Positions 29,225-37,801 of a stretch of DNA of 37,899 bases are shown piece after piece. The stretch comes from Gammaproteobacteria bacterium (GTDB taxonomy: Bacteria > Pseudomonadota > Gammaproteobacteria > UBA6429 > Thiohalophilaceae), in contig JAFLJQ010000103.1 of assembly GCA_022712915.1 (NCBI GenBank), positions 1 to 37,899 of the forward strand, given 5' to 3'. The notes below the pieces were generated by a model, which had not been told where the DNA came from, searched no databases, and saw nothing but the letters and a program-made list of their open reading frames with translations. The position numbers and the translations under genes were made by a program. Positions within the stretch are counted from its first letter, which is position 1, and every line of letters starts with the position of its first letter.

Positions 29225-31378
29225 ATGAAACCTGTGCAGCTCAAGGCCGTGACTCATCCTGTTGTTACCGATATCAAGTTACAACCTGCCTCAGAAGATA
29301 TCTGGGACAAAAAATATCGCCTTACCAGTAAGGAAGGCGAGCATGTCGATGCCACGATTGACGACACCTACCAGCGTGTCGCCCGTGCCCTGGCCGAGGT
29401 CGAGGCCCCTGAAAAGCGTGACCATTGGCATGAACAGTTCCTCTGGGCGTTGCGCCATGGGGCCATCCCGGCCGGTCGTATCATCTCCAATGCAGGCGCC
29501 CTGCAACACAAGCCCGCCACCTCGACCATCAACTGTACTGTGTCTGGCATCGTTGAAGATTCCATGACCAATATATTAGAGAAGGTGCAGGAGGCCGGAT
29601 TGACCCTCAAGGCTGGTTGCGGCATCGGTTATGAATTTTCCACCCTGCGTCCAAAAGGGGCCTATGTCTCCGGTGCCGGGGCTTACACCTCCGGGCCACT
29701 GTCCTTCATGGATATCTACGACAAGATGTGTTTCACCGTCTCCAGTGCCGGGGGCCGCCGTGGCGCACAAATGGCCACCTTCGATATCGGTCACCCCGAT
29801 GTCATGGAGTTCATCCGTGCCAAGCGTGAAGACGGCCGCCTGCGCCAGTTCAACCTGTCCCTGCTGATCACCGACGAGTTCATGCAAGCGGTGAAAGACA
29901 ATACCGACTGGCAACTGGCCTTCCCCATCACCAAAAAGGAAGCCGAACAGGACAAAGTCAGCCTCAACGACCCATCGCAAATTGTCTGGCGTGAATGGCC
30001 ACTGCAAAAACCGTATATCAGCAACAAAGAAGGTCTGGTGGCCTGCAAAATCTACAAGACCATTAAGGCCCAGCGCCTGTGGGACATGATCATGGGCTCC
30101 ACCTATGATTTTGCCGAACCCGGCTTCATTCTCATCGACAAGGTCAATGAGATGAACAACAACTGGTTCTGTGAAAAGATCCGGGCGACGAATCCTTGTG
30201 GTGAGCAGCCATTGCCTCCATACGGATCATGCTTATTAGGTTCCATCAACCTCACCAAGTTCGTGCGTGATCCGTTTACAGACAAGGCCACGTTTGACTG
30301 GGATGAATTCAACAAAACCGTGGGCATTTTTACCCGCATGTTAGACAACGTGGTTGAGATCAACGGCCTGCCATTGGAAGGACAGCGTGATGAGATCCTC
30401 GCCAAACGTCGTCACGGCATGGGCTTCCTGGGTCTGGGTTCCACCGTCACCATGCAGCAAATGAAATACGGCAGCCCGGAATCCGTTGAGTTCACCGAAA
30501 AGGTCGCTCGCGAACTGGCCATGACCGGCTGGCACGCGGCCTTGGAACTGGCGAAGGAAAAAGGCCCTGCACCGATCATGGAGCAGGACTTCAAGATCAC
30601 GGCTGAAATGTTGCGTAAACGCCCTGAGATGAAAGAGGACGGCTACAAGCTCGGTCAAAAGATCAAGGGCAAGGTTCTGCACGCCAAATACAGTCGTTAC
30701 ATGCAACAGGTGGGCGAGGTGAATCCTGAACTGTCCAATGCCCTGGCCGAAGTGGGCGCTCGCTTCACCCATCACAGCTCCATCGCCCCCACCGGCACCA
30801 TTTCTTTATCCCTGGCCAATAATGCCAGCAACGGCATCGAGCCCAGCTTCGCCCATCACTATGCACGCAACGTGATCCGCGAAAATCGCAAAACCAAAGA
30901 AAAGGTCGATGTATTTTCCTTTGAACTGCTCGCCTACCGCGAACTGATCAACGAAAAAGCCATGCCCTATTCACAGGAAAAAGACGAGCAACTGCCCGAC
31001 TACTTCATCACCGCCGAAGACATCACGCCAAAAGAACACGTCGATGTCCAGGCCGCGGCACAAAAGTGGGTCGATTCCAGCATCTCCAAAACGGCCAACG
31101 TACCCACAGACCACCCGTATGAAGACTTCAAAGACATCTACACCTACGCCTACGAACAGGGCCTGAAAGGTTGCACCACCTTCCGTTACAACCCCGAAGC
31201 CTTCCAGGGTGTATTGGTGAAAGAACAGGACTTGGCCAACACCACCTACCGCTTCAAACTCGAAAACGGCCAGGAGATCGAAGTCAAAGGCAACGAAGAG
31301 ATCGAATACGATGGTGAAATTCATTCAGCGGCTAATTTATTTGATGCCTTGAAAGAAGGTTACTACGGAAAATTCTGA
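29225..31378 (+). CDS. nrdJa: Class II (B12-dependent) ribonucleotide reductase, large part NrdJa
   Basis: Reduces ribonucleoside diphosphates to deoxyribonucleotides using adenosylcobalamin; needs no oxygen. The 717 residues contain the catalytic barrel: C104 in STINCTVSG, the glycyl region GCGIGYEFSTLRPKGAYVSG, the N323-P-C325-G-E327 motif (NPCGEQPLPPYGSCLLGSINL) and PTGTISLSLANNASNGIEPSF. It lacks the C-terminal TSCPD/cysteine module, which is encoded separately downstream, as in the split NrdJa/NrdJb enzyme of Pseudomonas. A good ribosome site, CCGGAG, precedes the ATG. The upstream NrdR and DnaA boxes suggest replication-linked control. No class I nrdAB genes are in the window. Confidence 0.92.
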   Translation: MKPVQLKAVTHPVVTDIKLQPASEDIWDKKYRLTSKEGEHVDATIDDTYQRVARALAEVEAPEKRDHWHEQFLWALRHGAIPAGRIISNAGALQHKPATSTINCTVSGIVEDSMTNILEKVQEAGLTLKAGCGIGYEFSTLRPKGAYVSGAGAYTSGPLSFMDIYDKMCFTVSSAGGRRGAQMATFDIGHPDVMEFIRAKREDGRLRQFNLSLLITDEFMQAVKDNTDWQLAFPITKKEAEQDKVSLNDPSQIVWREWPLQKPYISNKEGLVACKIYKTIKAQRLWDMIMGSTYDFAEPGFILIDKVNEMNNNWFCEKIRATNPCGEQPLPPYGSCLLGSINLTKFVRDPFTDKATFDWDEFNKTVGIFTRMLDNVVEINGLPLEGQRDEILAKRRHGMGFLGLGSTVTMQQMKYGSPESVEFTEKVARELAMTGWHAALELAKEKGPAPIMEQDFKITAEMLRKRPEMKEDGYKLGQKIKGKVLHAKYSRYMQQVGEVNPELSNALAEVGARFTHHSSIAPTGTISLSLANNASNGIEPSFAHHYARNVIRENRKTKEKVDVFSFELLAYRELINEKAMPYSQEKDEQLPDYFITAEDITPKEHVDVQAAAQKWVDSSISKTANVPTDHPYEDFKDIYTYAYEQGLKGCTTFRYNPEAFQGVLVKEQDLANTTYRFKLENGQEIEVKGNEEIEYDGEIHSAANLFDALKEGYYGKF

Positions 31379-31617
31379 ACGAGGCGGATGGACTGATGCG
31401 GCGTTGCGGCACTTTCTGAAAATGCTCATGTACAACTTGTACACTCCGCTTTTCAGAAAGCACCGCGCCTTGCCTCAGCCTCATCGGCCTCGCTCAGTAT
31501 GAACGGCGGATGGACTGATGCGGCGTTGCGGCACTTTCTGAAAATGCTCATGTACAACTTGTACACGCCGCTTTTCAGAAAGCACCGCGCCTTGCCTCAT
31601 CGGCTTCGCTCAGAAAG
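31379..31617. repeat. Tandem pair of nested palindromes (family B) between nrdJa and nrdJb
   Basis: Two copies of about 115 bp stand head to tail (about 31384-31500 and 31504-31617). Each holds a stem TTTCTGAAAA/TTTTCAGAAA enclosing an inner stem TGTAC/GTACA, with the strand CGGATGGACTGATGCGGCG at the left. The copies are almost identical, so the duplication is recent. The remaining bases to 31790 hold no convincing gene, only the nrdJb ribosome site GAGGAG and a TTTAGCGGCCTTTGCGG motif. Confidence 0.8.
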
Positions 31618-31790
31618 AAGCTTACAGTTGTAATGAAAAAAGATGAACCGTGGAGTACGTAAAGAAATGCAAGGTTTTTACATAGCGTCTTTTAGCGGCC
31701 TTTGCGGTTAACAGAGACCCATAACATGAACCGCAGACGCAACACCCAACAACGTCGTATGAAAGAACACACCGTGAGGAGAAGCAGACA

Positions 31791-32507
31791 ATGGCTGTTA
31801 AGATTGAAAGCAAAATAATTAGTTACGAAGTCGCCAAAGATGAGATTGAAGACGACATCGCCGGTGATCTCGCCATCGCCGAAGTCAAAGGTGAACTGAA
31901 AAAAGACAGCAACATCGTGCACATGCACGAAAAGGTCGAACGGCCCGAAATGCTGCTTGGCTCCACCTACAAAATAAAAACACCGCTGAGCGAACACGCC
32001 CTGTATGTCACCATCAATGACATCATCCTGAACGCTGGCACCGAACATGAGTTGCGTCGCCCGTTTGAAGTCTTCATCAATAGCAAAAATATGGACCACT
32101 TCCAATGGATCGTCGCCCTGACCCGCATCAGCTCCGCCGTCTTCCGCAAAGGCGGGGATGTCACCTTCCTGGTCGAAGAACTCAAAGCCGTATTCGACCC
32201 CAGTGGCGGCTACTTCAAAAAAGGCGGTAAATTCATGCCCTCCCTGGTCGCAGAAATCGGCGAAGCCATCGAAAGCCACATGCGCATGATCGGCATGATC
32301 AAAGACGAAGGCCTCAACGAACAGCAGAAAAAACTGATTGCAGAGAAACGGGCGCAGTATGAAGGTAGCGTAAAACAAGCAGAGGAGACATCACCTGGCG
32401 ACTTTCCTGATGGGGCACAGGTATGTAAGAAGTGCAGTGTGAAGGCTGCGATAAGGATGGATGGGTGTATGACGTGTCTCAACTGCGGCGACTCCAAATG
32501 CGGTTAA
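31791..32507 (+). CDS. nrdJb: Class II ribonucleotide reductase, small part NrdJb (TSCPD/cysteine tail)
   Basis: A 238-residue partner of NrdJa. Residues about 60-165 form the TSCPD-type domain (ALYVTINDIILNAGTEHELRRPF). The C-terminal tail carries cysteines C212 and C215 (VCKKCSVKAA), C226 and C229 (GCMTCLNC), C232 and C237, suited to passing electrons from thioredoxin to the active site, possibly with a zinc site. In Pseudomonas, NrdJb is needed for NrdJa activity and the two genes lie almost together; here about 410 bp of repeats intervene. A GAGGAG ribosome site precedes the ATG by about 10 bases. Confidence 0.88.
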   Translation: MAVKIESKIISYEVAKDEIEDDIAGDLAIAEVKGELKKDSNIVHMHEKVERPEMLLGSTYKIKTPLSEHALYVTINDIILNAGTEHELRRPFEVFINSKNMDHFQWIVALTRISSAVFRKGGDVTFLVEELKAVFDPSGGYFKKGGKFMPSLVAEIGEAIESHMRMIGMIKDEGLNEQQKKLIAEKRAQYEGSVKQAEETSPGDFPDGAQVCKKCSVKAAIRMDGCMTCLNCGDSKCG

Positions 32508-32935
32508 GAGCGGCGTCAGTAACCCGTATGCGGCGTTAAAATGCTCTGCGTAAATGCTCACATACTAAAATGTATGCTCCGCTTTCCGCAGAGCATTTTG
32601 CCTTGCCTACGGATTCCTGACTTGCTCTTAATTAACAGCGGTGCGAGAAATCCGTATACGGCGGGTGACGTACAGGGATGTACTAATGTCGCGAGAGGCA
32701 TGGATGCCGGAAGCGACCGGCACTTTCTGAAAATGCTCATGTACTACTCGTACACTCCGCTTTTCAGAAAGCACCGCGCCTTGTCTGCGAATCCCTCGCT
32801 TGCTCTTAACAAAGTAATGGTTGAGAGTGGTATTCAGCTCGTGTCCTGTGTAAATGCTCACGTACTAAAATGCATGCTCCGCTTTCCGCAGAACATTTTG
32901 CCTTGCCTACGGGTTCCTGACTTGCTCTTAACAAG
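32508..32935. repeat. Block of three family B nested palindromes
   Basis: Three units follow nrdJb. The first (about 32510-32632) has the perfect arms AAAATGCTCTGCG/CGCAGAGCATTTT around CATAC/GTATG. The second (about 32655-32815) uses TTTCTGAAAA/TTTTCAGAAA around a TGTAC/GTACA stem like the nrdJa-nrdJb pair. The third (about 32842-32935) is close to the first. All share the core AATGCTCA...TGCTCCGCTTT or similar, and end in TTGCTCTTA. Reading frames through the block are accidental. Confidence 0.75.
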
Positions 32936-32997: not shown

Positions 32998-34044
32998 ATG
33001 AACCAAACACCTGCACAAAAATTAGAAGGTTATGTAATGCCTTGTGGATGGACGGTGAAGAGTTATATTCCAAATGGTGCTGGTCATACAGGAAGTGCAT
33101 TTTCTATTGGGTATAGTGCGGTGAAAGATGGGGATAAAGCATTCCTTAAAGCGTTAGACTTTAAAAAATTAATGGCGATGGGTGCACCAGACCCGCTTAG
33201 TGCAATAAGATATATGACTGAGTCCTTTGAATATGAAAGAGACATACTAAGACAATGTAGAGATGGAAAATTATCGCGAGTTATACGTTCATTATCAGAT
33301 GGATCAATAGATGTGGATGGGTTTCCTGTCCCCTATATAGTATTTGAAATGGCAGAAAGTGACGTTAGAAAGGAATCTATTAAACAGGTTGGTTTTAATT
33401 TGGCATGGGCACTAAGGACTATGCATCATGCGAGTATAGGGTTAATGCAGCTGCATAGTCGTGAAATATCGCATCAAGATCTAAAACCATCGAATATATT
33501 AATAGTAGAAGATGGTGGGCGTAAATTAGGTGATTTTGGGACAAGTGTAAGCAAAGATTGTAAATTGCCACATGCTAACACTCCTATAGCGGGTGACAGG
33601 TCGTATGCTGCGCCTGAAGGTTTATATGGCTATGTAGATCCTGATTGGTCAATTCGTCGGTTTGGTTTTGATGCATTTCAGTTGGGTAGTTTATTTGTAT
33701 TTATGATCACGGGCGTACCTGCAAGTACACTACTAATAAGTAATCTCCATGGTTCTCATCAGCCAGAAAGTTGGAGCGGTACATATAAAGAAGTTATCCC
33801 GTATTTGCAAGAGGCATTTGTAAATGTTGTTGAAACGGTCGATGGCCATCTGATGAATAATAAATTAAAGGAACAGATTTTATCAATAATCAAGGAGCTT
33901 TGTGAACCTTCATTATTTTTAAGAGGAGATCCAGTTTTAAGGAGAAAGAAGATGAACCCATATGGCATGGAGCGATATGTTAGTCGTTTTAATCGTTTCT
34001 CAACTATTGTGGAGAGGGAACTATATAATATGGTGGTTAAGTGA
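32998..34044 (+). CDS. Eukaryotic-like Ser/Thr protein kinase
   Basis: A 348-residue soluble Hanks-type kinase. Visible motifs are the ATP lysine K51 (AFLKALD), helix-C glutamate E80 (FEYERDIL), the catalytic loop HQDLKPSN (159-166, with Q replacing the usual R of HRD), DFG (179-181) and APE (205-207). The glycine loop (NGAGHTGSAF) is unusual. No transmembrane, PASTA or other sensor domain follows, but about 140 residues of unknown fold form the C-terminus. I use the ATG at 32998, six bases after GGAG; an ATG at 32986 lacks a site. The gene is AT-rich with many ATA and AGA codons, unlike nrdJ, suggesting acquisition. It overlaps the TPR gene (GTGA). Confidence 0.82.
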   Translation: MNQTPAQKLEGYVMPCGWTVKSYIPNGAGHTGSAFSIGYSAVKDGDKAFLKALDFKKLMAMGAPDPLSAIRYMTESFEYERDILRQCRDGKLSRVIRSLSDGSIDVDGFPVPYIVFEMAESDVRKESIKQVGFNLAWALRTMHHASIGLMQLHSREISHQDLKPSNILIVEDGGRKLGDFGTSVSKDCKLPHANTPIAGDRSYAAPEGLYGYVDPDWSIRRFGFDAFQLGSLFVFMITGVPASTLLISNLHGSHQPESWSGTYKEVIPYLQEAFVNVVETVDGHLMNNKLKEQILSIIKELCEPSLFLRGDPVLRRKKMNPYGMERYVSRFNRFSTIVERELYNMVVK

Positions 34045-35567
34045 GTTTTCTAGGTGTAACCGAAAAACGTCGAATAATTCCAAGATGGAGGAGTTTCTCT
34101 AAAACCGCGATGACTGGTGAGCTGTCTACACTAAAAGATCCTCGCAAGTCAAAATCACTAAGAAACGATGTTTCTTTGAAGTTGTATGTTGATTTGTGGA
34201 ATAAAAATAAATGTATGGAAACGGCGCAAGACATTATCTATTATGCTGTAACTACAGGTTGTTTTGATTTGGCTGTTAATCAAGCAAATTTTATCCTCGA
34301 AAATAAAAAAAACATTTCAGACGAACTTCTTTTTATATCAAAAAATATTGTTAGCGAAGATCAACGTGTAATTGATGTTGTGCCAGACAGTGATTTAAAA
34401 CTACATAGCTTAAAAGAGGCTGTGTTTTCAGAAATAAGAAAATACAAAATGAGATTAAGAGGCTGGCCAAGAAATTCTATTTTGTGGATAGAGTTGGCTA
34501 GGTTGTACACCATACTTAATGAAACAGATAAAGCACATAATGCGGTGAGAATTGCACTTCAATTAGATGGGCAAAATAGATATGTAGTGAGAAGTGCGAT
34601 AAGATTTTTTTTACATTTATCCGAGTTAGATGATGCGAAAGGTTTGTTTGATAAGCAAGAGTCAATATATTCTGATCCATGGGTTCTTGCGCCATATGTT
34701 GCTCTTCAAGATAAACTAGGAAAAACAAATCTAAGAATTAAAAACGTTCGAGAGCTACTAAATGAAATTGATGATGCTCAGGCGACAGAGTTGGCGGGTT
34801 CCTTAGCCTCATTGGAAATGGATAATGGTTCAATTAAAAATGCAAAAAAATTATTTAAGAGGAGTATGTTGAACCCAAATGACAACTCTTTGGCGCAAGC
34901 AGCATGGGCTTCATCTAAGCTTGGGGAAGTAACAAAAGTAAGTGATTTTCACGTTCCTTATATGTATGAGGCGGCCACACGTGATTCACTTGTGAATGAA
35001 GAGTATGAACAAGCATTAAGACATTGTATGTCTTGGATGATTGATGAGCCGTTTTCGTCTATTCCAGCAACAACAGGTTCATATGTGGCGGCATCTTTTT
35101 TTGAAAAATTTGATTGTGCAGAACAGTTTTGTCAAATGGGCCTTCAAGCAAATCCGACTGATAAAATGTTGTTAAATAATTATACAGTAGTGTTAGCTAA
35201 ATTAGGTCGGCTTAATGATGCTATGGATACATTTAGGAAAATACGCGAAGTAGATAAAATTTCACCAATGGCAATTACTATATTGGCAACCTCTGGGTTA
35301 TTATCTTTTAGAAGGGGGGACATAATTGAGGGGCGAAGAAAATATCTCGAGTCTATAGAACTTGCTAAACGTATGGGGAATATTGAAAGTGGTGCGATGG
35401 CAGCAATTCACTATGCAATAGAAGAGTTGGAGTGTGGAGATTTGCCGCTTATTGAGATTAGACAAATTGTAGAAACTAATATAAAAAAAATAGAACATCC
35501 AAATATAAAACATCTTAAGGATAAAGTTGTTAATAAAATAAATGACAAGCCCGGTAGGTTGGGCTGA
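34041..35567 (+). CDS. TPR-like helical repeat protein, partner of the kinase
   Basis: A 508-residue protein, probably all-helical, with TPR-like pairs (for example SILWIELARLYTILNETDKA, YVVRSAIRFFLHLSELDDAK, MLLNNYTVVLAKLGRLNDAM). The N-terminal 55 residues are basic (GVTEKRRIIPRWRSFSKTAM) and conserved-looking but unrecognised. There is no signal peptide or enzyme motif. The GTG start overlaps the kinase stop as GTGA, implying coupled, balanced synthesis and probably a complex. It shares the AT-rich codon use of the kinase. The last residues (KPGRLG-stop) are encoded by a REP element, so the natural C-terminus may have been lost or altered. Its function is unknown. Confidence 0.72.
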   Translation: MSFLGVTEKRRIIPRWRSFSKTAMTGELSTLKDPRKSKSLRNDVSLKLYVDLWNKNKCMETAQDIIYYAVTTGCFDLAVNQANFILENKKNISDELLFISKNIVSEDQRVIDVVPDSDLKLHSLKEAVFSEIRKYKMRLRGWPRNSILWIELARLYTILNETDKAHNAVRIALQLDGQNRYVVRSAIRFFLHLSELDDAKGLFDKQESIYSDPWVLAPYVALQDKLGKTNLRIKNVRELLNEIDDAQATELAGSLASLEMDNGSIKNAKKLFKRSMLNPNDNSLAQAAWASSKLGEVTKVSDFHVPYMYEAATRDSLVNEEYEQALRHCMSWMIDEPFSSIPATTGSYVAASFFEKFDCAEQFCQMGLQANPTDKMLLNNYTVVLAKLGRLNDAMDTFRKIREVDKISPMAITILATSGLLSFRRGDIIEGRRKYLESIELAKRMGNIESGAMAAIHYAIEELECGDLPLIEIRQIVETNIKKIEHPNIKHLKDKVVNKINDKPGRLG

Positions 35568-35585
35568 GTGATAGCGATGCCCAAC
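35549..35585 (+). repeat. REP hairpin 1 (GTAG type)
   Basis: GCCCGGTAG is followed by the stem GTTGGGC (35558-35564) / GCCCAAC (35579-35585) with a 14-base loop. The GTAG tetranucleotide directly 5' of a hairpin is the form recognised by RAYT transposases. It overlaps the end of the TPR gene and supplies its TGA. Confidence 0.75.
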
Positions 35586-35634
35586 AAAAGAATCGACCAC
35601 TGTACATGAATCAATGTAACATCTTGCTTGCTGG

Positions 35635-35656
35635 TTCCCACGGTCTTCCGTGGGAA
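35635..35656. repeat. TTCCCACG palindrome, copy 1
   Basis: TTCCCACG-GTCTTC-CGTGGGAA, a perfect 8-bp stem resembling common extragenic palindromes of proteobacteria. A second copy is at 36562-36583. Confidence 0.65.
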
Positions 35657-35729
35657 TCCATACCAACATAGACATTGCCATGCAGAAATATGGGACTGAG
35701 GAATGGGAGATCTAAAGGAGGAGTAGAGG

Positions 35730-36467
35730 ATGAATATTTTGATTGCGGAAGATGCGCCATTTTTACAGCTTTTGAACAGGGAATTAATGAATGTTTGGGG
35801 CTATGATTTTGATATGGCGTCTGATGGTCGGGAGGCGGTGGATTATGCTCAGAGGAATGAAGGCAAGTATGATCTTTGTCTGATGGATGTTGAAATGCCT
35901 GGTATGAATGGGATCGAGGCCACCCGGATTATTCGACAGACGGTGAAGTATTTTCCGATATTGGCTTTCACATCAAACCCCAACTATAAAGAATCCTGTC
36001 TTGATGTGGGTATGGATGATTTTTCTGTCAAACCATGCCCTCACGCGGAACTGTTCACTAAAATAAATGAATTAACCGTAAAAGCTATAAAATGTGTGTT
36101 ACAAGGTAATAATATAATTACAAAAGAGGAAATGCCGGTGGATAAGAAACATGCTGAAGAATTGAGAGAACTTGCCAAAAATAACTTATGCAAGGTGACG
36201 TTCTTTGATACCCCTGGTCGAGCATTAATTGTCCATAAAAATATTTTGAATCGGGTATCACATGATTTCAATATAAAAGGCCAATTCCTGTCAACATTTA
36301 TTAACCGAGATCCAGATAAGCCAACACTCTGCCATTTGTACAAAGATAGCAATTATCTTATGCCGCAGATCTTTCTCATGAACGATGAGTATGATTCGTT
36401 AATTAATGATGAAGATGTCGAACTGGAAAAATATTCTGAATTATCATTGAGTGCAGAGGATGATTAA
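35730..36467 (+). CDS. Receiver-domain protein with unknown C-terminal domain
   Basis: A 245-residue protein. Residues 1-118 form an intact receiver: E7-D8 (IAEDAP), phosphoacceptor D53 (LMDVEMPGMNG), T81 (FTSNP) and K101 (SVKPCP). Residues about 135-245 form a domain I do not recognise (KKHAEELRELAKNNLCKVTF, then QFLSTFINRDPDKPTLCHLY), ending in an acidic tail; it has no evident helix-turn-helix or enzyme motif. An AAAGGAGG ribosome site precedes the ATG. It could serve the kinase/TPR pair or a kinase elsewhere. Its promoter region and first 36 codons are duplicated downstream. Confidence 0.78.
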   Translation: MNILIAEDAPFLQLLNRELMNVWGYDFDMASDGREAVDYAQRNEGKYDLCLMDVEMPGMNGIEATRIIRQTVKYFPILAFTSNPNYKESCLDVGMDDFSVKPCPHAELFTKINELTVKAIKCVLQGNNIITKEEMPVDKKHAEELRELAKNNLCKVTFFDTPGRALIVHKNILNRVSHDFNIKGQFLSTFINRDPDKPTLCHLYKDSNYLMPQIFLMNDEYDSLINDEDVELEKYSELSLSAEDD

Positions 36468-36472
36468 TATAT

Positions 36473-36508
36473 CCCGGTAGGTTGGGCTGAGTGATAGCGA
36501 TGCCCAAC
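36473..36508 (+). repeat. REP hairpin 2 (GTAG type)
   Basis: CCCGGTAG is followed by the stem GTTGGGC (36481-36487) / GCCCAAC (36502-36508). It is identical to REP 1 in the hairpin and begins the duplicated 290-bp segment. Confidence 0.75.
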
Positions 36509-36561
36509 AAAAGAATCGACCACTGTACATGAATCAATGTAACATCTTGTTTGGTTTCTGG

Positions 36562-36583
36562 TTCCCACGGTCTTCCGTGGGAA
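36562..36583. repeat. TTCCCACG palindrome, copy 2
   Basis: The same perfect 8-bp stem as at 35635-35656, carried in the duplicated segment. Confidence 0.65.
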
Positions 36584-36656
36584 TCCATACCAACATAGAC
36601 ATTGCCATGCAGGAAGTTGGGAATGAGGAATGGGAGATCTAAAGGAGGAGTCGAGG

Positions 36657-36773
36657 ATGAATATTTTGATTGCAGAGGATGCGCCATTTTTACAGCTTTT
36701 GAACGGGGAATTAATGAATGTTTGGGGCTATGATTTTGATATGGTATCTGATGGCAGGGAGGCAGCACCGTAG
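36657..36773 (+). pseudogene. Truncated duplicate of the receiver gene
   Basis: The first 36 codons repeat the 35730 gene with few changes (MNILIAEDAPFLQLLNGEL), preceded by the same ribosome site and about 180 bp of matching upstream sequence. Homology ends at about 36762, and the frame stops at TAG 36771-36773 before the phosphorylation site. It cannot form a receiver. Confidence 0.8.
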
Positions 36774-36898
36774 GCTATACAGAAAATAAGTCGCATAAAT
36801 TTTATAAAGATCTGTCTGAATTGGCAAAGCAGGAAGATTTGATCTGGGGTGGTGACTTTAAACAAAGGTGGGATCCATGTCATATCGAAATGCCTTAG
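36761..36898 (+). pseudogene. C-terminal remnant of an M15-like peptidase
   Basis: In the frame after the receiver homology ends, 45 codons read to a TAG at 36896. They include YKDLSELAKQEDLIWGGDFK and RWDPCHIEM, resembling the end of phage or VanY-type D-Ala-D-Ala peptidases (WGGDW ... D-P-H-F), where the histidine is a zinc ligand. No start is present, so it is the tail of a gene joined to the duplicated receiver segment by a deletion. The family assignment is tentative. Confidence 0.5.
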
Positions 36899-37326
36899 TA
36901 TTTACAATTGCACTGTTTATTTCCAATCCTGTTATGGCGAAGGATACTGCGCCTGTTTTGTCTGATCTCTGGCTTTCAAAAAGTATTGGTGTTTGGGAAA
37001 AGGGTAAGGAGTATGGTTATTTTAAGGTGCTGGTTTATCGTATGGGTCTTGAACATGCTGGTGATAAGATACGGATTATTATCACTCAGGCGGATACAAA
37101 AAATAACCGTCAAATAGTTAAATATGAAAAATGGTTAGGATCTCCTGGTTATAAAGGATTTGTAGATAATATTAGCTTGAAGATGCTCAAGTCGGATAAA
37201 TTGATTCTCGGCGTTGATGTAGAAATGAAAGGAATGGATGGTGTGATCTTGAAAGAAGTCTATATTGTCGATTTAAAAGGGAAGGTAAAAAAGTTGGTTG
37301 ATGCCAAATACAAAGATATATATTAA
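36877..37326 (+). CDS. Small secreted protein of unknown function
   Basis: A 149-residue protein starting at ATG 36877 (MSYRNALVF), with a signal peptide cleaved after VMA (IALFISNPVMA-KD). The mature part is basic and beta-rich in appearance (YFKVLVYRMGLEHAGDKIRI, DKLILGVDVEMKGMDGVILK) without a recognisable motif or cysteine. A GTG at 36868 would add three residues, but the ATG places the signal peptide properly. It overlaps the end of the peptidase remnant by 22 bp, which may reflect an original coupled pair. Confidence 0.65.
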   Translation: MSYRNALVFTIALFISNPVMAKDTAPVLSDLWLSKSIGVWEKGKEYGYFKVLVYRMGLEHAGDKIRIIITQADTKNNRQIVKYEKWLGSPGYKGFVDNISLKMLKSDKLILGVDVEMKGMDGVILKEVYIVDLKGKVKKLVDAKYKDIY

Positions 37327-37394
37327 ACATGCTGTCAGTTTCTCACATAAAAATATTATTGCTAGGGTTTATCTTCCCTTTTATCAATACAGGA

Positions 37395-37428
37395 GCCCGG
37401 TAGGTTGGGGTGAAGAATGAACCCCAAC
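37395..37428 (+). repeat. REP hairpin 3 (GTAG type, covarying stem)
   Basis: GCCCGGTAG is followed by GTTGGGGT / ACCCCAAC. Compared with REPs 1 and 2 the stem has changed from GGGC/GCCC to GGGG/CCCC with pairing kept. It lies 40 bp upstream of the RAYT gene. Confidence 0.75.
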
Positions 37429-37468: not shown

Positions 37469-37801
37469 ATGCAATATCGACGAGATGATACTAAAGGTGG
37501 AACCTGGTTTTTTACGGTTAACTTGGCAGAGCGACATAAAAATACCTTGGTTGATGAAATAGATATATTACGGAAAGTGATGAACAAGGTAAAACAACAG
37601 TATCCGTTTAAGGTTGATGCCATGGTGGTGTTGCCTGACCATATTCATGCAATATGGACATTGCCTGTTAATGATAATGACTATCCAACACGCTGGGGGC
37701 TAATCAAATCTGGTTTTTCACGCAAAATCCCCAAGCTTGAACGTATTAACAAAAGCCCGGTAGATACCATCTCCCTCTATCAAACACAAGTCACTAAATG
37801 A
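37469..37801 (+). pseudogene. REP-associated tyrosine transposase (RAYT), interrupted
   Basis: The N-terminal part of a RAYT (TnpA-REP, Y1 HUH superfamily), which cleaves and mobilises REP hairpins. Typical motifs are MQYRRDDTKGGTWFFTVNLA and the metal-binding HUH motif H58-I-H60 in VVLPDHIHAIWTLP, then PTRWGLIKSGFSRKIPK. Homology ends at about ERINKS (37754). The catalytic tyrosine region (IWQRRFWEH-like) is missing; the last about 15 residues are read from the end of an IS110-family element. The 3' part may lie beyond the insertion, outside the window. Confidence 0.8.

What the first reader, a model, noticed from the sequence alone, without database searches (positions are those of the whole stretch)
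32998..35567. Translationally coupled Ser/Thr kinase and TPR protein: candidate undescribed system
A complete soluble Hanks kinase (K51, E80, HQD, DFG, APE) overlaps by GTGA a 508-residue TPR-like protein with an unrecognised basic N-terminus. The pair is AT-rich, insulated by a terminator, and lies in a repeat- and transposase-rich region, which is the setting of many defence or stress modules. No known phage-defence system could be recognised, so defence is only one hypothesis; a signalling role with the adjacent receiver protein is another.
Basis: inference. Interest (0 to 1): 0.62.

Follow-up and report, generated by a model that had tools for sequence, protein, structure and literature searches.

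The report
Kinase–TPR pair, catalogued defence candidate
Two overlapping bacterial genes encode a protein kinase and a helical-repeat partner; the pair is a rare, horizontally acquired unit that a public database already lists as an untested candidate anti-virus system, and its kinase has two unusual active-site changes that make it worth testing.

Summary
The two genes are real: a soluble Hanks-type kinase (32998-34044) overlapping a TPR-solenoid protein (34041-35567) by GTGA. They are not undescribed. PADLOC models PDC-M71A (1.2e-105) and PDC-M71B (5e-126) cover both almost end to end, so this is a member of a catalogued but untested defence candidate. I found nine further loci in distant bacteria; in all nine the kinase gene lies directly upstream of the TPR gene, with a 4-base overlap in six. 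The pair is rare and compositionally foreign here (GC3 0.27 against 0.46). Several relatives sit beside integrases, relaxases or restriction systems, but a control from the same genomes also held defence genes, so enrichment was not shown. The kinases share two features: a non-RD catalytic loop (10 of 10; other kinases of the same genomes 2 of 30) and loss of the P+1 Thr, replaced by Asp in 9 of 10 (control 0 of 30). The TPR proteins carry a conserved N-terminal P-x-W peptide. Most likely reading: a two-gene phospho-signalling defence or growth-arrest module whose TPR partner gates the kinase. Defence is unproven. The claimed terminator is a dispersed repeat, and a receiver gene does not generally accompany the pair.

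The parts
32998..34044 (+). M71A kinase, soluble Hanks-type, 348 aa
   Evidence: PDC-M71A 1.2e-105, residues 2-342 of 348; Pkinase 2.9e-17
33148..33150 (+). catalytic Lys51 codon
   Evidence: invariant in 10 of 10 relatives
33472..33480 (+). HQD catalytic loop, non-RD (Gln in place of Arg)
   Evidence: Q or N in 10 of 10 M71A; Arg in 28 of 30 other kinases of the relatives' genomes
33592..33618 (+). GDRSYAAPE: P+1 loop with Asp where GTxxYxAPE kinases have Thr
   Evidence: Asp in 9 of 10 M71A (Ser in L013); T or S in 30 of 30 controls
33901..33933 (+). C-lobe motif CxPxxxxRGxP (C302, P304, R309, G310 invariant)
   Evidence: 10 of 10 relatives
34041..34044 (+). GTGA stop/start overlap of the two genes
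   Evidence: sequence; 4-base overlap in 7 of 10 loci, gaps of 3, 7 and 8 in the others
34041..35567 (+). M71B TPR-solenoid protein, 508 aa
   Evidence: PDC-M71B 5e-126, residues 3-501; all-helical model, mean pLDDT 78.7, pTM 0.74
34068..34097 (+). conserved N-terminal peptide RRIIPRWRSF (P14 and W16 invariant)
   Evidence: flanking residues 1-7 and 30-44 have pLDDT under 50
35548..35630 (+). dispersed repeat with palindrome; holds the TPR stop codon; not a terminator

Best explanation
The pair is a member of the catalogued candidate system PDC-M71: a mobile, two-gene phospho-signalling module, most likely against phages or other invading elements. Shown: a complete kinase and a TPR solenoid, coupled, and inherited together in distant bacteria. 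Inferred: the kinase does not depend on activation-loop phosphorylation (non-RD loop; no loop Ser/Thr column conserved in 7 or more of 9 relatives), so its TPR partner, made in step through translational coupling, gates it. The partner's conserved N-terminal P-x-W peptide is the likely docking element, and the TPR groove the likely sensor surface. On infection the partner would release or direct the kinase, which phosphorylates an unknown target and arrests growth (abortive infection).
For: PADLOC M71A/M71B matches for this pair and for five further pairs scanned. Kinase directly upstream in 10 of 10 loci; 4-base overlap in 7 of 10. Foreign composition and no second M71B in 57 relatives (other matches are TPR background of at most 33.8 bits against 418). 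Mobile settings: three plasmids; phage integrase just downstream in L016 and L017 and an annotated integrase upstream in L011. Restriction or candidate-defence genes close by in three of nine loci: type III R-M in L014, type ISP enzyme in L018, PDC-S02 in L012; annotated Pycsar effector and cyclase 3-5 kb away in L013. All ten kinases keep catalytic residues and share non-RD and P+1 changes. Precedent for a toxic Ser/Thr-kinase defence: KKP (PMC11341870, passages).
Against: No phage test of PDC-M71 was found in the searched library. A control of 10 stretches from the same genomes also held CRISPR-Cas I-E, PDC-S35 and RtcR-type hits, so neighbourhood enrichment is not shown. This window has no defence gene near the pair among the ORFs scanned. 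No homologue in phage records or viral contigs. Gating, docking and target are inference; no complex was modelled. Correlation of the two proteins' distances falls from r 0.82 to 0.39 without one close pair.
Confidence: 0.45

Rival explanations
1. The pair is a stability or toxin-antitoxin-like module of plasmids and integrative elements: the kinase is the toxin, the TPR protein restrains it, and loss of the element frees the kinase. Any effect on phages is secondary.
For: Plasmids in three of ten loci, integrase or relaxase nearby in others; coupled two-gene design; the kinase gene comes first and never alone in the eight genomes or records searched.
Against: Sizes (about 350 and 510 aa) are large for such modules. 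In plasmid pDrdB the kinase is cut by an IS6 element and the TPR gene is missing, so the pair can be lost. Toxicity was not tested.
Confidence: 0.25
2. A general stress or developmental signalling pair carried as cargo by mobile elements, unrelated to defence.
For: TPR and kinase domains are generic signalling parts; defence enrichment not shown by the control.
Against: Very patchy distribution (one hit besides the centres together) and no conserved neighbour gene.
Confidence: 0.25
3. A signalling unit with the adjacent receiver protein (35730-36467).
For: Adjacent on the same strand and also AT-rich (GC 0.378); L013 has an annotated response regulator and histidine kinase upstream of the pair.
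Against: Separated by a dispersed repeat; its GC3 is not unusual (19 of 135 ORFs as low); Response_reg matched only 2 of 76 neighbour ORFs.
Confidence: 0.05

Closest known systems
PDC-M71 (PADLOC-DB 2.0.0 putative defence candidate; the class is attributed to Payne et al. 2024, doi 10.1101/2024.01.29.577857, not held and not read; known here through passages of PMC12988326)
   Same: Both proteins match the two models almost end to end; same gene order in relatives.
   Different: No difference found. The catalogue gives no description or mechanism; the non-RD, P+1-Asp and N-terminal peptide features are observations made here.
KKP (PfkA, PfkB, PfpC) of prophages (PMC11341870, abstract and passages)
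   Same: Soluble Ser/Thr kinase module on mobile elements; a plausible model for kinase-driven growth arrest.
   Different: KKP has two HRD kinases and a phosphatase antitoxin; here there is one HQD kinase and a TPR protein, with no phosphatase in the pair.
Single-kinase defence families PD-T4-6, Stk2 and MADS Mad6
   Same: Hanks-type kinase fold; PADLOC matches at 1.4e-14 (PD-T4-6), 2.8e-8 (Stk2) and 9e-15 (mad6).
   Different: About 90 orders of magnitude weaker than M71A; different partners and architecture (partners recalled, not tested).
PknB/PknA/StkP kinases
   Same: Best bacterial solved relatives by profile (62 bits or less).
   Different: M71A is soluble by architecture (348 aa), non-RD, and lacks the P+1 Thr; that PknB uses activation-loop phosphorylation and a membrane sensor domain is recalled.

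Membership tests
PDC-M71 (PADLOC) | Kinase matching PDC-M71A along its length | tested here: met
   1.2e-105, profile 5-349 of 352
PDC-M71 (PADLOC) | TPR protein matching PDC-M71B along its length | tested here: met
   5e-126, profile 3-510 of 515
PDC-M71 (PADLOC) | Both genes adjacent | tested here: met
   4-base overlap; PADLOC's own system rule was not available to read
Anti-phage defence system | Protects against phage | not testable with these tools
   no experiment found in the library for PDC-M71
Anti-phage defence system | Enriched beside known defence genes | tested here: inconclusive
   defence genes near at least 3 of 9 loci, but the control stretches also held several (both family lists were cut at 25)
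Hanks-type protein kinase | VAIK Lys, alpha-C Glu, HxD, DxG, APE-type Glu | tested here: met
RD kinase with GTxxY P+1 loop (PknB-like) | Arg before the catalytic Asp; Thr/Ser in the P+1 loop | tested here: not met
   Gln160 and Asp200
KKP | Two kinases plus a phosphatase | tested here: not met
   pair of one kinase and one TPR protein; definition

The most novel reading that the evidence does not exclude
M71A is an immune-type kinase of a distinct catalytic class in bacteria: non-RD, with an acidic residue at the P+1 Ser/Thr position, held ready and switched not by loop phosphorylation but by a peptide of its co-translated TPR partner. This would be a phosphorylation-based defence controlled by a dedicated repeat-protein sensor, loosely analogous in logic to the non-RD immune kinases of plants (recalled).
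Probability: 0.2. Interest if true: 0.65.

Novelty: new member of a known kind. Interest (0 to 1): 0.36.

Why it matters
If the pair defends cells, it would add a phosphorylation-based immune module with a TPR sensor, and give a simple two-protein system in which to ask how a non-RD bacterial kinase is switched. Recording that the finding is already in PADLOC as an untested candidate prevents a false claim of discovery, and the ten aligned pairs point to specific residues to test.

Tried and rejected
Rejected: 'undescribed system' (PADLOC match). Rejected: terminator insulation. Disfavoured: partnership with the receiver gene.

Lowered: Ser/Thr18 of the TPR protein as the kinase's phosphosite. 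With nine sequences it was S/T in eight and Asp in L013, the same locus whose kinase has Ser instead of Asp at P+1, which looked like covariation. The tenth pair (L102) has Pro there while its kinase keeps Asp, so the residue is S/T in only 8 of 10 and the covariation does not hold up.

Not shown: defence-island enrichment. Not shown robustly: co-evolution of the two proteins. Mantel r 0.82 (33 of 20,000 permutations as high) drops to 0.39 without L012 (1,224 of 20,000) and 0.42 without L012 and L017 (1,465 of 20,000).

Little gained: structure models confirm folds only. The kinase model is poor in the N lobe (mean pLDDT 72.8; listed Foldseek matches have TM-scores of 0.40 or less); the TPR model matches generic TPR superhelices. 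No complex could be modelled. Phage and viral collections gave nothing.

Rows dropped: of 35 control kinases fetched, 5 had no recognisable motif string and were left out. Of 142 control ORFs listed (13 stretches), 107 from 10 stretches were scanned because of the residue limit; one long ORF of L026 was among those left out. Of 40 random stretches fetched, those 10 were used for this control. L102 was found later and is not in the neighbour control. PADLOC scans of single proteins covered this pair and 5 of the 9 other pairs; the rest were placed by profile or tblastn.

Full report
What is there. ORF listing and translation confirm a 348-residue kinase (32998-34044) and a 508-residue TPR protein (34041-35567) sharing the bases GTGA. 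Pfam gives Pkinase at 2.9e-17 and several TPR models above cut-off. The GTG start of the TPR gene agrees with the starts of its relatives in the alignment.

Identity. PADLOC-DB names the kinase PDC-M71A (1.2e-105) and the TPR protein PDC-M71B (5e-126), each along nearly the whole length. Passages of PMC12988326 describe PDCs as putative defence candidates of PADLOC found by a 'guilt-by-embedding' approach and still mostly without experimental validation. The primary preprint is not held and I did not read it. No paper in the library contains 'PDC-M71'; a second search for PDC-M71A/B found no occurrence in the 10 papers listed of 19. The listings gave no description of this pair in the titles and abstracts shown; in DefensePredictor (PMC13092281) I saw passages only.

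Relatives. tblastn found 3 of 72,556 plasmid records (Rhizobium etli, Arthrobacter, Deinococcus) and no phage record. One genome-contig scan, limited to a single peptide pattern, found five loci: Latescibacterota, Verrucomicrobia, Solirubrobacteraceae, Cryobacterium aureum and a betaproteobacterium. Two viral-contig scans found none. Otherwise they found only the centre genome: 1 of 299, 1 of 396 (32), 1 of 396 (40), 1 of 399 (41), 1 of 64 (42), 2 of 184 (84, centre included) and 1 of 189 (85). These draws overlap in part, and in most genomes only the first 3 to 23 candidates were scored. In 58 near relatives, own included, a looser family search rang in 38, but apart from the window's own match (418 bits) the matches were at most 33.8 bits, that is TPR background; 4 of 14 control genomes rang too. 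The pair is thus rare and patchy.

Co-occurrence. In all ten loci the kinase gene lies directly upstream on the same strand. The overlap is 4 bases in seven (window, L012, L013, L016, L017, L018, L102), and the gap is 3, 7 or 8 bases in L015, L011 and L014. In the eight genomes or records the M71A-type kinase occurs once each (E 1e-138 or better; the next kinase 6.8e-21). In plasmid pDrdB of Deinococcus wulumuqiensis an IS6 element follows a truncated M71A and no M71B is present; the annotated products upstream are in the same order as at the intact Deinococcus NW-56 locus. Pair identities of the two proteins correlate (r 0.82), but mostly through one close pair; without L012 r is 0.39.

Setting. 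The pair is compositionally foreign here. Upstream of 32.5 kb the scanned ORFs are housekeeping or two-component genes. Elsewhere the pair lies 0.4 kb from a type ISP restriction enzyme (L018), 2.1 kb from a type III restriction-modification system and next to an ImmA/XRE and PIN-like pair (L014), 0.8 kb from a PDC-S02 nuclease (L012), beside phage integrases (L016, L017), near an integrase and a NACHT gene by annotation (L011), and 3-5 kb from annotated Pycsar genes (L013). As a control I compared 76 ORFs of 200 aa or more around nine loci with 107 ORFs from ten stretches of the same genomes or plasmids, at E 1e-30 against PADLOC. The test set gave 43 families, with R-M, PDC-S02 and one further RmrA member. 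The control gave 30 families, with CRISPR-Cas I-E, PDC-S35, RtcR-CARF, mad3 and DndA/SspA, the last probably housekeeping desulfurases (25 families shown of each). Enrichment is not demonstrated. Phage_integrase matched 3 of 76 test ORFs and, being absent from the multi-member families listed, at most 1 of 107 control ORFs. This fits mobility but is a small sample, and three loci came from a plasmid collection.

Kinase features. In ten aligned M71A proteins K51, E80, H159, D161, K163, N166, D179 and E207 are invariant. Residue 160 is Gln in nine and Asn in one, so all are non-RD. Residue 200, the position of the Thr in the GTxxYxAPE consensus, is Asp in nine and Ser in one. Among 35 other kinases of the five genomes behind L014-L018, 30 had a readable motif string: 28 were HRD and 2 HQD, and the P+1 position was Thr in 25 and Ser in 5. 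Fisher tests give 7.8e-8 and 3.7e-8, treating sequences as independent, which they are not. No Ser/Thr column of the activation loop is conserved in seven or more of nine. A C-lobe motif CxPxxxxRG is invariant.

TPR protein. The model is an all-helical solenoid (mean pLDDT 78.7, pTM 0.74) like generic TPR superhelices. Before the repeats lies a short conserved peptide: P14 and W16 in 10 of 10, R10 and R15 in 9 of 10, E/D27 in 10 of 10. It stands out against poorly conserved flanks (mean conservation 0.62 for residues 10-27 against 0.38 for 1-9 and 0.35 for 28-60; nine sequences). I first read Ser/Thr18 as a phosphosite; the tenth sequence has Pro there, so I now read the peptide as a docking or structural element. 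The last residues (KPGRLG) are encoded by the dispersed repeat, in a tail that is variable in the family.

Mechanism. Shown: coupled genes, intact catalytic residues, shared unusual residues, conserved peptide, mobility. Inferred: gating by the TPR partner, sensing by its groove, growth arrest through an unknown target. KKP offers a precedent for kinase toxicity in defence (PMC11341870, abstract and passages) but differs in architecture.

Verdict. It is a member of PDC-M71, untested as far as the searched library shows, with some features not seen described in that library.

Noticed in passing
window 35548-37413: A dispersed palindromic repeat (GTAGGTTGGGCTGAG type) occurs three times at an exact spacing of 923 bases (95% or more identical over 20 nt). 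A 213-nt copy (36551-36763) includes the first about 107 bases of the receiver gene, suggesting a partial duplication of the receiver's upstream region.
   Followed up: partly
window 32546-32931: Copies of a 60-86 nt repeat directly upstream of the kinase; origin not identified.
   Followed up: no
window 37469-37801: Small ORF with a weak Y1_Tnp match (E 0.002, below cut-off); looks like a REP-associated transposase remnant (recalled).
   Followed up: partly
L098:4962-6197: Deinococcus wulumuqiensis plasmid pDrdB: M71A cut short beside an IS6 transposase, M71B missing; a natural loss of the pair.
   Followed up: partly
L014:7101-8853: HTH/ImmA-type protein (Peptidase_M78 7e-16) and a PIN-like protein (PDC-S70, 1.9e-12) lie immediately upstream of the pair, with a type III R-M system downstream.
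   Followed up: partly
window 29225-32507: Ribonucleotide reductase: large barrel-domain ORF plus a separate TSCPD-domain ORF resembling the C-terminal part of B12-dependent RNR.
   Followed up: no
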